The notes beneath the pieces are model-generated. The model was not told the DNA's origin. It saw only the letters and a list, made by a program, of their open reading frames with translations, and ran no database searches. The position numbers and the translations under genes are program-made. A stretch of 64,000 nt of DNA. Source: Myxococcota bacterium. GTDB lineage: Bacteria; Myxococcota_A; Bradymonadia; UBA7976; UBA1532. Location: positions 248,001 through 312,000 of the forward strand of contig CAUJDF010000058.1 of assembly GCA_963169045.1 (NCBI GenBank). The letters are read 5' to 3'. Below, one piece after another: positions 24,738 to 28,746 of the stretch. Numbering within the stretch: position 1 is the stretch's first letter; each line of letters opens with the position of its first letter.

Positions 24738-24766
24738 ATTCTTCGAGCGCGTCGTGTGGAAGTCAA
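24738..24766 (-). promoter_or_regulatory. Candidate metK promoter
   Basis: On the minus strand TTGACT (24761-24766) is followed after 17 bases by AAGAAT (24738-24743), about 38 bases before the metK ATG. The -35 overlaps the stop region of the upstream gene. Confidence 0.4.
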
Positions 24767-25284
24767 TGGAACCAAAGGGGGAACCCGAAGGCGCCGAGCC
24801 CCAGGCCCGCCGCGGCCCCGAGGACGAACCACCAGGCCCGGCCGCGGGCCAGACGCTGCTCGAGCGGGAATTCGACGCGGTGGAGGCGCCCGCGTTCCGC
24901 GTCGAAGAGCAGGACGCCGTCGACGTCGAACCCCATCGCGTATTCGAGCAGCTGGCGGCGGGTGGCGCGGCGCGCGGGGTCCGCGCCCTGTCCCGACTTC
25001 ACCTCGACGAGGAAGCGGCGCCCACCGCGCGCGACGAGGTAGTCGCCCTCGAGCCGCATCGGGCGCGGCTCGCCGTCGACGTGCAGATCATACTCGGCGA
25101 TCGGCCGGTGACGGACGAGCCGGAAGCCGGCGCGCGCGAGCGCCTTCGGCGCCTCCGACTCGAGGCGCCGGCCCCGGAGGCTGCGCCGCAGGCCGCGCCA
25201 TCGCCGCCAGCGCGCGACCGCCAACGCGACCAGGGCGGCGAGCGTGATCCCCGCGGCGAGGCCCAGGATCAGGTCGGGACGCAT
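24763..25284 (-). CDS. Membrane-associated PD-(D/E)XK-like protein of unknown function
   Basis: The 173-residue protein has an N-terminal membrane helix (DLILGLAAGITLAALVALAV) and a C-terminal hydrophobic stretch (WWFVLGAAAGLGLGAFGFPL). Between them is a domain with Glu/Asp and an EVKSG motif: EYDLHVDG, LEGDYLVARGGRRFLVEVKSG. That pattern fits the PD-(D/E)XK nuclease-like fold (D...EVK). A membrane-bound nuclease-like protein could act on incoming or periplasmic DNA, but this is inference. It diverges from the encapsulin operon. Confidence 0.6.
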   Translation of the reverse strand: MRPDLILGLAAGITLAALVALAVARWRRWRGLRRSLRGRRLESEAPKALARAGFRLVRHRPIAEYDLHVDGEPRPMRLEGDYLVARGGRRFLVEVKSGQGADPARRATRRQLLEYAMGFDVDGVLLFDAERGRLHRVEFPLEQRLARGRAWWFVLGAAAGLGLGAFGFPLWFH

Positions 25285-25297
25285 GGGGTGTCGCGCC

Positions 25298-25326
25298 TTG
25301 CGGGCAGGGGAGGCTCCGGCTAGAGT
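25298..25326 (+). promoter_or_regulatory. Candidate promoter of the encapsulin operon, apparently leaderless
   Basis: TTGCGG (25298-25303) and TAGAGT (25321-25326) are separated by exactly 17 bases. The cargo-gene ATG starts at 25334, only seven bases after the -10, so transcription would begin at or next to the start codon. There is no ribosome site between the -10 and the ATG. Confidence 0.5.
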
Positions 25327-25333
25327 GCGCGCC

Positions 25334-25672
25334 ATGGCCGAGGCGGACGATCGCGCGCTCGTGCGCAGGTTCATCGCACGAGAGCTCGAAACCATCAACG
25401 AATACGAGCAGTTCGCCGCCCAGGCGACCTCGCCGGCCCTCAAGCGCTTTTTCGAGCACGTCGCGCAGGAAGAGCGCGAGCACGTCGCCGAGGGCATGCA
25501 CGAGCTGCTCGCGCTCGACCCCGCCCAGCAAGCCATCGTCGACTACCACGAAGCCCACGCCCTCCCGAAGGCGTCCGCTCCCGCGAAGGCCGCGGCGCCG
25601 AGCGACGGCCTCCTGCAGGGGTATACCCGTCTCACTGTCGGCAGCCTGCGCGCCCGAGGACCTCAACCATGA
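25334..25672 (+). CDS. Encapsulated ferritin-like cargo protein (EncFtn)
   Basis: The 112-residue protein has a compact two-helix ferritin-like core. Acidic and His residues sit where encapsulated ferritins bind iron: FIARELETINEYEQF (E17/E19, Y24) and QEEREH (E47, H50). A flexible Ala/Pro/Lys linker leads to a C-terminal LTVGSLR at residues 100-106, the typical encapsulin targeting peptide that docks the cargo inside the shell. EncFtn proteins form an annular decamer and oxidise Fe(II). The stop overlaps the shell-gene ATG (ATGA), so cargo and shell are co-translated. Confidence 0.9.
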   Translation: MAEADDRALVRRFIARELETINEYEQFAAQATSPALKRFFEHVAQEEREHVAEGMHELLALDPAQQAIVDYHEAHALPKASAPAKAAAPSDGLLQGYTRLTVGSLRARGPQP

Positions 25673-26514
25673 TGGGCAACTTCTTCAGCCACGAGGAGAA
25701 CCCGCTCACGCCCGAAGAGTGGGAGAAGCTCAACGCGATCGTCGTCGAGGAGGCGCGGCGCCAGCTGGTGGGGCGCCGCTTCATCGACGTCTACGGCCCG
25801 CTCGGACCGGGCGTGCAGGCGATCGCCTTCGACGAGTTCCGCGGGGTGACGGCGGGCGCGGTCGACCTCGTCGGCGAGGCCGACACGGGCACCGTCTTCC
25901 CCGACAACCGGCGCTTCAAACCGATCCCCTTGATCTACAAAGACTTTCTCGTCCATTGGCGCGACATCGAGGCGAGCCGGGCCAACAACTACCCGCTCGA
26001 CGTCTCGGCGGCGGCCGGCGCGGCGACCTTCTGCGCGCGCAAAGAGGACGAGATCATCTTCTACGGCGTCGAGAAACTCGGCTTCGAAGGGCTGATGAAC
26101 GCCCACGGCCGCGAGATCATCAAGCTCGAGCCGTGGGACGAGGCGGGCTCCGGTTTCCGCAACATCCTGCGGGCGGTCGAGAAGCTGCTCAGCGGGCACC
26201 ACTACGGTCCGTACGCGCTCGTGCTGAGCCCCGATCGCTTCGCCGAGCTGCACCGCATCTACGAGAAGACGGGCACGTTCGAGATCGACAGCATCCGCAA
26301 GCTGGTGACCGACGGCGTCTTCCAGTCGAGCGTGCTGCGGCCCGACTCCGCGGTGGTCGTCGCCACCGGGCGCGGCAACCTCGATCTGGCAGTCGCGCTG
26401 GACCTGTCGGTGGCCTACCTCGGCAGTGAGCGGATGAACCACCCCTTCCGCGTCGTCGAGGCGGTGGCCCTGCGCATCAAGCACCCCGACGCCATCTGCA
26501 CGCTGGAAGTCTGA
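25669..26514 (+). CDS. Encapsulin shell protein (family 1)
   Basis: The 281-residue protein has the HK97-fold encapsulin pattern: an N-terminal helix (LTPEEWEKLNAIVVEEARRQ) that binds cargo peptides, FIDVYGPLGPGVQA, the E-loop region (FKPIPLIYKDFLVHWRDIEA) and the C-terminal FRVVEAVALRIKHPDAICTL. The size is near T. maritima and M. xanthus shells. Family-1 encapsulins form 24-42 nm cytoplasmic icosahedral cages; with EncFtn they store iron and protect from oxidative damage. Two ATG codons (25669, 25672) are in tandem. Confidence 0.95.
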   Translation: MMGNFFSHEENPLTPEEWEKLNAIVVEEARRQLVGRRFIDVYGPLGPGVQAIAFDEFRGVTAGAVDLVGEADTGTVFPDNRRFKPIPLIYKDFLVHWRDIEASRANNYPLDVSAAAGAATFCARKEDEIIFYGVEKLGFEGLMNAHGREIIKLEPWDEAGSGFRNILRAVEKLLSGHHYGPYALVLSPDRFAELHRIYEKTGTFEIDSIRKLVTDGVFQSSVLRPDSAVVVATGRGNLDLAVALDLSVAYLGSERMNHPFRVVEAVALRIKHPDAICTLEV

Positions 26515-26521
26515 GAGCGCG

Positions 26522-27637
26522 TTGCGCCGTCTCGTCCCCGTCGTCGTCGCGCTGACCCTCGCCGCCTGTGATCTGCAGCAGCTTCAGGAGCAGGCCGGGC
26601 AGGGGGTCGCCCTGAAGGAGGGCCTCGAGGCCGCCGAGAAGGCCGGTCGCCCGCCCGCGCTCACCCCGGAGGCGGTGGACGAGCGCGCCGAGCTCCTGGC
26701 GGTGCTCGCCCGCCCCCCCGCCCGGGCGATGCCGCGCCTGGGCGCGCTGCGGCAGACGCTCGAGGCGTCGTTCCTCCTCGAGGCCGACGGCGAGCGGGAG
26801 GTGGCGCTCGACGAGAAGCTGGAGCTTCGGCACGACGCGAAGGGCCAGTACGCGCTGCGCCACGACAACACGTCGTGGTCCGCCGAGGACCGCGAGGCGC
26901 GCGGCGGCCGCGCGTGCTGGTGGGTGGACGGCCGCTTCTACACGGCGCGCGCGCAGGGACCGGCCACCGAGGTCCCGGTGCGCGCCTACGAGCAGGAGCG
27001 CTGCCTCGAGAGCGCGACGGAGCCCTTCGTCGGTCTGTTGCGCCTGCTCGGCGGGCACCTCGTGACGTCGCCGGGCGTGCCGACCGAGGTGGCGGGACGC
27101 AAGGCGTTGCGCATCGCGCTGACCCGGGACGGTGTCGCCCAACCGCCGACGTCGCAGGTGCCGCTGGCCTGGCCCCCGGGCGACGCCGGCGTCGAGTCCG
27201 CCGCCATCTACGGTCCGCGCCCGCCGCTCGTCGAGCTTCATGCGCGCCCCCGGGAGATGAAGGGCGAGGTGATCCTCGACGTCGAGACGGGCGCGGTGCT
27301 CGCCGGCGAGATCCAGGGGGCGCTCGTCGTCCGAAAGGCCAATCGCGACGCGACTTTGCAGCTGCGGGCGAAGCTCGTGGCCGAGCCGCTCGACGTCGCG
27401 ATCACGCCGCCGGAGGGTGCGCGCGTCTACGGGCCGAGGCAGCGTGTCTTCGAAGACCGCCGCGCCCTGCTCGGCGAAGTCTTCAAGAAGCGCGAGAAGG
27501 TCCAGCTCCCGAAGCCGGGCGACGCCCCGCCGCTGCGGCTCGGCGCCACCGAGGACGACGTCGTCCCGCCCGAGGGCGAAGGGGAGGCCGGCGCGCCCGA
27601 CGACGGCGACCCCCCCGCCGAAGGGACACCGCGATGA
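26522..27637 (+). CDS. Lipoprotein of unknown function
   Basis: The 371-residue protein has a signal peptide with lipobox LAAC at residues 13-16 (MRRLVPVVVALTLAAC), so it is predicted to be lipid-anchored. The mature part is beta-rich with two further cysteines (ACWW and RCLE). The C-terminal 40 residues are an acidic Pro/Glu/Gly tail. I do not recognise a domain. It begins at TTG seven bases after the encapsulin stop and overlaps proB by ATGA, so it is in the same transcript. Confidence 0.75.
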   Translation: MRRLVPVVVALTLAACDLQQLQEQAGQGVALKEGLEAAEKAGRPPALTPEAVDERAELLAVLARPPARAMPRLGALRQTLEASFLLEADGEREVALDEKLELRHDAKGQYALRHDNTSWSAEDREARGGRACWWVDGRFYTARAQGPATEVPVRAYEQERCLESATEPFVGLLRLLGGHLVTSPGVPTEVAGRKALRIALTRDGVAQPPTSQVPLAWPPGDAGVESAAIYGPRPPLVELHARPREMKGEVILDVETGAVLAGEIQGALVVRKANRDATLQLRAKLVAEPLDVAITPPEGARVYGPRQRVFEDRRALLGEVFKKREKVQLPKPGDAPPLRLGATEDDVVPPEGEGEAGAPDDGDPPAEGTPR

Positions 27638-28746
27638 GCAGCCCGTCCGACCTGGCGCAGGCGCGCCGGGTCGTCGTCAAGATCGGCAGCGGCGTGCTCC
27701 GGGAAGGTCGCCGCTTCGACCGGGTCACCTTCGCCTCGCTCGTGCGCGACCTCGTCGCGCTCCGCGAGGCCGGCAGCGAGGTGGTGGTCGTGTCGAGCGG
27801 CGCCGTCGCCCTCGGCATGGAGCGCCTCGGCGCCACGGAACGCCCCGTCGAGATGGCGCGCCTGCAGGCGACCGCCGCCATCGGCCAGGGTCGCCTCATG
27901 CGCCTGTGGGAGGACGAGCTCGGCGGCTACGGCATCCTCGCCGCGCAGGTGCTGCTCACCCACGACGACCTGCGCAGTCGCCGCCGCTACCTCGCGGCGC
28001 GACACGCGCTGCGCGCCGTCCTCGAGCTCGGCGCCATCCCCGTGATCAACGAGAACGACACGGTCGCCATCGACGAGATCAAGATGGGCGACAACGACAT
28101 GCTGTCCGCGCAGGTGGTGAACCTGGTCGAGGCGGACCTGCTCGTGCTGCTCTCCGACGTGGATGGGCTCTACGACCGGCCGCCGAAGGAGCCGGGTGCA
28201 GTGCGACTGCCGCGCGTCACGCGCGTCGACGCCGAGGTCGCGCGCATGACCGGCGGCAGCGGCTCCGTCTTCGGCAGCGGCGGGATGCGCACCAAGGTCG
28301 AGGCGATGCGCCAGGTCAACCGCCGCGGGATGCCGGGGATCATCGCCGGCGGCAAGACACCCGGCGTGCTGCGGCGGCTGCTCGCCGGGGAGGCGCTCGG
28401 CACCTGGTTCGAGCCCGAAGAGAACCCGATCCAGAGCCGCAAGCAGTGGATCGGCTACGCGCTCCGCCCGAACGGGACGCTCCGCATCGACGCCGGCGCG
28501 GTGCGCGCGCTGCGCGAGAAGGGATCGAGCTTGCTGCCCGTCGGTGTGGTCGCCGTCGAGGGAGAGTTCGGCGTCGGCGACGCGGTGCGTGTCGTCGGAC
28601 CCGACGGCGAGGAGGTCGCGCGGGGGCTCGTCGCCCACGAGGCTGAAGCCGTGCGCGCGGCGATGGGTCGCAAGGGCAGCCTCGACACGTCCGCGCCCGA
28701 GGTCATTCACCGCGACGATCTCGTCACCCTGCCCCGAGGCGATTGA
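27634..28746 (+). CDS. proB: Glutamate 5-kinase
   Basis: ProB phosphorylates glutamate as the first step of proline synthesis. The 370-residue product has the kinase motifs VVVKIGSGVL, VVSSGAVALG, PVINENDTVA and SGGMRTKVEA. A C-terminal PUA domain begins at about residue 280 (RIDAGAVRALREKGSSLLPVG). The partner proA is in the same window but 16 kb away, on the other strand (44203-45465), so the pro genes are split. Confidence 0.96.
   Translation: MSSPSDLAQARRVVVKIGSGVLREGRRFDRVTFASLVRDLVALREAGSEVVVVSSGAVALGMERLGATERPVEMARLQATAAIGQGRLMRLWEDELGGYGILAAQVLLTHDDLRSRRRYLAARHALRAVLELGAIPVINENDTVAIDEIKMGDNDMLSAQVVNLVEADLLVLLSDVDGLYDRPPKEPGAVRLPRVTRVDAEVARMTGGSGSVFGSGGMRTKVEAMRQVNRRGMPGIIAGGKTPGVLRRLLAGEALGTWFEPEENPIQSRKQWIGYALRPNGTLRIDAGAVRALREKGSSLLPVGVVAVEGEFGVGDAVRVVGPDGEEVARGLVAHEAEAVRAAMGRKGSLDTSAPEVIHRDDLVTLPRGD

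What the first reader, a model, noticed from the sequence alone, without database searches (positions are those of the whole stretch)
25298..26514. Encapsulin nanocompartment with a ferritin-like cargo
A two-gene ATGA-coupled unit encodes an EncFtn-like iron-oxidising protein with a C-terminal LTVGSLR targeting peptide and a family-1 encapsulin shell. This predicts an iron-storage protein cage. The transcript seems to continue into a lipoprotein gene and proB, an unusual extension. The targeting peptide and the metal ligands are seen directly; cage formation is inferred from the family.
Basis: partly seen in the sequence, partly recalled or inferred. Interest (0 to 1): 0.8.

Follow-up and report, generated by a model that had tools for sequence, protein, structure and literature searches.

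The report
EncA-type encapsulin with ferritin-like cargo
Two overlapping genes encode a virus-capsid-like protein shell and a small iron-oxidising protein tagged to go inside it, a close cousin of the Myxococcus iron-storage cage, apparently acquired by a distantly related bacterium that lacks the usual bacterial iron-storage protein.

Summary
The finding is real and its reading is right in essence. Cargo (25334-25672, 112 aa) and shell (25669-26514, 281 aa) overlap by ATGA. The shell is a family 1 encapsulin nearest to Myxococcus xanthus EncA (about 63% identity; model TM 0.92-0.94). The cargo is nearest to M. xanthus EncB (model rmsd 0.7-0.9 A), not to EncFtn proper: it keeps the HxxxEExEH ferroxidase motif and an LTVGSLR tag but falls below every curated EncB/EncFtn family cut-off.

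The 'unusual extension' has a plain explanation. Lipoprotein-proB is the native gene pair of this bacterial family, present without encapsulin in nine relatives; the cargo-shell pair sits at its head. An EncA-type shell occurs in no other of 57 class genomes searched, so gain by transfer is most likely.

Two leads go further. The genome has no bacterioferritin, although all five other family genomes at least 90% complete have one. A second cargo-like gene, a classical EncFtn with a TVGSLR tail, lies on another contig, ATGA-coupled to a flavin reductase. Across 30 Myxococcota EncFtn loci, a targeting tail is present exactly where the genome has a shell, and its type fits the shell type.

New member of a known kind. 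Cage formation and iron loading are inferred.

The parts
25334..25672 (+). EncB-like ferritin-like cargo, 112 aa; ferroxidase-centre residues E17 (25382-25384), E47 (25472-25474), H50 (25481-25483)
   Evidence: PDB EncB E 3.4e-16; NCBIfam EncB 77.6 bits, below cut-off; E17, E46, E47, H50 invariant in 52 cargos; AlphaFold two-helix model, Foldseek top hits EncB 7s5k/7s5c
25631..25651 (+). C-terminal targeting peptide core LTVGSLR
   Evidence: Direct reading; LTVGSL occurs at this place only, the one other pattern match in the 9 Mb genome encoding LTVGT; same motif at the C-terminus of EncB relatives
25669..26514 (+). Family 1 encapsulin shell protein, EncA type, 281 aa
   Evidence: NCBIfam encap_f1 283.8 bits, cut-off 100; Pfam Linocin_M18 230.7 bits; M. 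xanthus EncA E 3e-119; model TM 0.92-0.94 to EncA T=3 shells
25285..25333 (.). 49-bp space between divergent start codons; the promoters of both directions must lie here or inside the neighbouring genes
   Evidence: Sequence; no sigma-70-like site found
26522..27637 (+). Native lipoprotein gene (lipobox LAAC), no Pfam or NCBIfam family; precedes proB in relatives
27634..28746 (+). proB, glutamate 5-kinase; native gene
   Evidence: TIGR01027 397 bits; up to 68% identical and syntenic in the same family
24763..25284 (-). Divergent ORF next to metK, family-specific; left border of the insertion site
   Evidence: Homologues at the same place in three same-family genomes

Best explanation
This is an EncA/EncB-type encapsulin iron store. 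The shell self-assembles with the HK97 fold, most likely as a T=3 cage of about 32 nm like EncA. The EncB-like cargo is anchored inside through its LTVGSLR tail, assembles (probably as decamers) so that two subunits form a di-iron ferroxidase centre, oxidises Fe(II) with Glu17, Glu47 and His50, and the Fe(III) is deposited in the shell lumen. Shown here: homology, ligands, tail, gene coupling, fold models. Inferred: assembly, cage size, loading, oxidation, storage. The two-gene unit was most likely gained from a Myxococcia-like donor. It was placed at the head of the native lipoprotein-proB pair, with which it is probably co-transcribed, without any functional link to proline synthesis. It probably serves as the main iron store, because the genome lacks bacterioferritin and ferritin, and it may load a second EncFtn cargo encoded elsewhere in the genome.
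For: Shell: encap_f1 284 bits and Linocin_M18 231 bits, EncA E 3e-119, model TM 0.92-0.94. Cargo: EncB E 3e-16, ligands and tag Gly-x-Leu invariant in 52 relatives, model rmsd 0.7-0.9 A to EncB, cargo-upstream-of-shell order shared by relatives. Insertion: lipoprotein-proB intact without encapsulin in nine same-family genomes; EncA-type shell in 1 of 57 class genomes; shell lies within a Myxococcota-dominated clade with support 100/98 and sister to the Myxococcia EncA clade at 91/72; none of the native neighbours lies near any of 80 related shells. Iron-store role: no Bfr in this genome, Bfr in all five other family genomes at least 90% complete, Dps-like gene present. Second cargo: TVGSLR-tailed EncFtn.
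Against: The cargo misses every curated family cut-off. The arginine of the V-xxxx-R spacing modelled for EncA loading (PMC7925596) is here Ala, with Arg on either side. EncA can also form T=1 shells (PDB 7s21), so the size is open. The sister relation to Myxococcia has moderate support. The genome is an incomplete assembly (95.4%), so absence of Bfr and of further cargos is not certain. No expression data.
Confidence: 0.88

Rival explanations
1. The shell encloses the cargo mainly as an oxidative-stress or iron-detoxifying device rather than as a dynamic iron store; Dps and other ferritin-like proteins carry storage.
For: A Dps-like gene and further ferritin-like proteins are encoded in the genome. 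The literature allows a dual role for such systems (PMC8346489).
Against: Absence of Bfr and Ftn with Dps retained matches the pattern reported for IMEF encapsulin genomes, read there as main iron store (PMC6668986); relatives without encapsulin have Bfr.
Confidence: 0.2
2. The encapsulin pair is ancestral to the family and was lost by all sampled relatives, rather than gained by transfer.
For: The shell falls within a Myxococcota-dominated clade, the same phylum; third-position GC of the shell gene is like that of its neighbours.
Against: EncA-type shells are absent from the other 56 class genomes; at this locus relatives have the lipoprotein gene next to metK or the small ORF with no encapsulin.
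Confidence: 0.12
3. The lipoprotein and ProB are functional accessories of the encapsulin, forming one four-gene system.
For: Tight spacing: about 8 bp between shell and lipoprotein genes, ATGA between lipoprotein and proB.
Against: The lipoprotein-proB pair exists without encapsulin in nine relatives, and neither gene is near any of 80 related shells.
Confidence: 0.03

Closest known systems
Myxococcus xanthus EncA-EncB encapsulin (PDB 7s20, 7s2t, 7s5c; PMC12693112)
   Same: Shell about 63% identical, EncB-like cargo directly upstream, LTVGSL tag, ferroxidase motif HxxxEExEH
   Different: Cargo is 112 aa against about 156-164 aa in Myxococcus and lacks most of the Pro/Ala-rich linker; genes overlap by ATGA instead of a gap of about 45 nt; tag followed by RAR instead of RRG; the native neighbours proB and metK are not shared
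EncFtn cargo of Rhodospirillum rubrum and Haliangium ochraceum (PDB 5da5, 5n5f; PMC11202242)
   Same: Two-helix ferritin-like fold (TM about 0.6-0.75) and the same ferroxidase residues E32, E62, H65 by alignment
   Different: Sequence match only E 0.02; tag is LTVGSLR, not SLGIGSLK; classical shells such as that of H. ochraceum are only 20-25% identical to this one
IMEF encapsulins of Firmicutes (PMC6668986)
   Same: Genome without Bfr or Ftn but with Dps, encapsulin as the probable main iron store
   Different: IMEF is a four-helix protein lacking the EXXH motif (PMC11202242), in T=4 shells; here an EncB-like cargo and an EncA-type shell

Membership tests
Family 1 encapsulin shell | Match above the curated cut-off of encap_f1 / Linocin_M18 | tested here: met
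   283.8 of 100 bits; 230.7 of 24.3 bits
Family 1 encapsulin shell | HK97 capsid fold | tested here: met
   Model pLDDT 88; TM 0.92-0.94 to EncA cryo-EM shells
Family 1 encapsulin shell | Self-assembly into an icosahedral cage | not testable with these tools
   Needs expression and microscopy; inferred from EncA
Family 1 encapsulin system | Cargo gene directly upstream, with a C-terminal targeting peptide | tested here: met
   ATGA overlap; LTVGSLR tail
EncB / EncFtn cargo families | Score above curated cut-offs (EncB, EncB_fam, TIGR04535, PF22277) | tested here: not met
   77.6 of 210, 69.1 of 90, 45.7 of 125, 25 of 27 bits
EncB / EncFtn cargo families | Ferroxidase motif HxxxEExEH and upstream Glu | tested here: met
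   H42, E46, E47, E49, H50 and E17; E17, E46, E47, H50 invariant in 52 relatives (motif from PMC11202242)
EncB / EncFtn cargo families | Antiparallel two-helix fold | tested here: met
   Foldseek: EncB rmsd 0.7-0.9 A
EncB / EncFtn cargo families | Decamer with inter-subunit di-iron sites; ferroxidase activity | not testable with these tools
   Needs biochemistry
TIGR04535 encapsulin-associated ferritin-like protein (for the second cargo on contig C79) | Score above cut-off and targeting tail | tested here: met
   141 of 125 bits; PF22277 136 of 27; tail STVGSLRGRKDG

The most novel reading that the evidence does not exclude
A transferred EncA-type shell replaced bacterioferritin in this lineage and works with two cargos from unlinked loci: the adjacent EncB-like protein and a classical EncFtn on another contig whose tail has been retuned from LGIGSL to TVGSLR to fit this shell, and which is ATGA-coupled to an FAD/NAD(P)H reductase acting as a dedicated iron-release partner.
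Probability: 0.3. Interest if true: 0.55.

Novelty: new member of a known kind. Interest (0 to 1): 0.36.

Why it matters
It extends the EncA/EncB iron-storage cage to a class of Myxococcota where it was not seen in any other sampled genome. It also gives a clean example of a whole nanocompartment inserted as a two-gene cassette at the head of a native operon. If the Bfr loss and the retuned second cargo hold, it would show how a cell swaps its iron store and recruits an unlinked cargo by changing a few tail residues.

Tried and rejected
First genome-contig scan with the single shell sequence found no relatives; the scan with a small alignment found 80. A functional link to proB or the lipoprotein was rejected on synteny. 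The G000:C68 ferritin-like hit was rejected as a cargo: no targeting tail. Flanking repeats as a mark of transposition: only weak chance-like matches. GC content: no clear foreign signature. Promoter and Rfam scans: nothing. An N-terminal ferritin-like segment in the C79 reductase was tested and left open (hhalign probability 33%). A reductase next to EncFtn in the two other genomes with unlinked EncFtn was not found. The Structure 2022 paper on EncA/EncB was not held, so tail-pocket residues could not be checked one by one.

Full report
What is there. The window holds two overlapping plus-strand genes. The cargo runs from ATG 25334 to the TGA at 25672 (112 aa) and the shell from ATG 25669 to 26514 (281 aa), overlapping as ATGA.

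Shell. It passes the curated cut-offs of NCBIfam encap_f1 (283.8 of 100 bits) and Pfam Linocin_M18 (230.7 of 24.3). Its best solved relatives are the M. xanthus EncA shells (E about 3e-119), and the AlphaFold model (pLDDT 88) matches EncA T=3 structures with TM 0.92-0.94 at about 63% identity. Classical T=1 shells such as those of T. maritima and H. ochraceum are only 20-25% identical. A T=3 cage of about 32 nm is therefore likely, but EncA can also form T=1 shells (PDB 7s21).

Cargo. Nearest solved relative is EncB (E 3.4e-16); R. rubrum EncFtn is at E 0.02. The model is a helical hairpin with a disordered C-terminal part and matches EncB at 0.7-0.9 A rmsd. The bacterial EncFtn signature HxxxEExEH (PMC11202242) is present as H42-x3-E46-E47-x-E49-H50, with the upstream ligand E17; E17, E46, E47, H50 and the Gly-x-Leu of the tail are invariant in 52 aligned cargos. 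It nevertheless misses all curated cut-offs for EncB, EncB_fam, TIGR04535 and PF22277, so I describe it as working like EncB, and homologous to it, rather than as a member of those families. The tail RLTVGSLRARGPQP matches the EncC and EncB tail consensus in PMC11202242. LTVGSL is found at this place only: the pattern's one other match in the 9 Mb genome encodes LTVGT.

Relatives. Eighty related shells came from the second genome scan; most myxobacterial ones have an EncB-like cargo directly upstream with a VGSL-type tail. Cargos of Myxococcaceae and near kin are mostly 143-168 aa with a gap of about 20-58 nt to the shell, so this cargo is short and its overlap unusual for the group. In the tree the shell lies in a Myxococcota-dominated clade (100/98) as sister to the Myxococcia EncA clade (91/72, moderate).

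Host and insertion site. One class member has a single 8,047,206-base contig and another one of about 5.0 Mb, which fit Persicimonas caeni (8,047,306 bp) and Bradymonas sediminis (5,045,683 bp) (PMC7188933); the class is therefore probably Bradymonadia (inference). No other of 57 class genomes has an EncA-type shell; the one further match is a distant classical shell, 26% identical, in the Persicimonas-like genome. In nine same-family genomes the lipoprotein gene directly precedes proB with no encapsulin before it; where metK is on the same stretch it stands divergent, directly or behind the small ORF. The cassette is thus inserted between the divergent ORF (start 25284) and the lipoprotein gene (start 26522). 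None of the native neighbours is near any of the 80 related shells. Co-transcription is likely from the close spacing but not shown; a functional link to proline synthesis is not supported. Loss in all relatives is possible but less simple.

Iron-store context. This genome has no match to bacterioferritin, while Bfr is present in G002, G005, G006, G008, G009, G011 and G012, including all five other family genomes at least 90% complete; G004 has a ferritin-like Ftn. A Dps-like gene is present here (named from its sequence, not from a family search). This is the pattern reported for IMEF encapsulin genomes (PMC6668986). One genome at 95.4% completeness cannot prove replacement.

A second cargo in trans. 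A profile search of the own genome with 52 cargos found, besides the window gene, a protein at G000:C79:58492-58863: a classical EncFtn (PF22277 136 bits, TIGR04535 141 of 125 bits, R. rubrum EncFtn E about 5e-32) ending in STVGSLRGRKDG, with no shell nearby. In 30 Myxococcota EncFtn loci the tail follows the shell: 13 of 13 in genomes without a detected shell have no targeting tail, 17 of 17 in genomes with a shell have one. The 14 next to a classical shell carry LGIGSL-like tails; the three unlinked ones (this genome, G102, G046), whose only detected shells are EncA-type, carry [ST][VI]GSL tails. These counts ignore relatedness. The gene is ATGA-coupled to an FAD/NAD(P)-binding reductase, a candidate for iron release comparable in role to M. 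xanthus EncD (a ferric reductase, PMC12693112) but of a different size and without a tag. The reductase is not seen next to the other two unlinked EncFtn genes. That contig C79 belongs to the same organism is supported only by binning and by tetranucleotide similarity of 0.90.

Verdict. A well-supported encapsulin iron store of the M. xanthus type in an unexpected host, ordinary in kind, with a clear account of its odd operon position and two testable leads: replacement of bacterioferritin, and a retuned second cargo.

Noticed in passing
G000:C79, L199:5493-5867 (+): Second likely encapsulin cargo: classical EncFtn with tail STVGSLRGRKDG, not linked to any shell; the tail fits the EncA-type shell of this genome.
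   Followed up: yes
L199:5864-6796 (+): FAD/NAD(P)-binding reductase ATGA-coupled to that EncFtn; its first 58 residues resemble the EncFtn helix weakly (hhalign 33%). Possible iron-release partner.
   Followed up: partly
G000 whole genome against G002, G005, G006, G008, G009, G011, G012: Bacterioferritin is present in these same-family genomes but not found in the window's genome.
   Followed up: yes
L206 (G102:C30), L217 (G046:C33): Two other Myxococcota genomes with an EncFtn unlinked to a shell and a [ST][VI]GSL tail, each with an EncA-type shell elsewhere.
   Followed up: partly
L095 (BNCN01000016.1): Record titled Comamonas sp. KCTC 72670 carries a shell and cargo nearly identical to Myxococcus ones; probably a mislabelled or contaminated assembly.
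   Followed up: no
window 26522-27637 and L057-L065: A lipoprotein family without Pfam or NCBIfam match that precedes proB in nine genomes of this bacterial family.
   Followed up: partly
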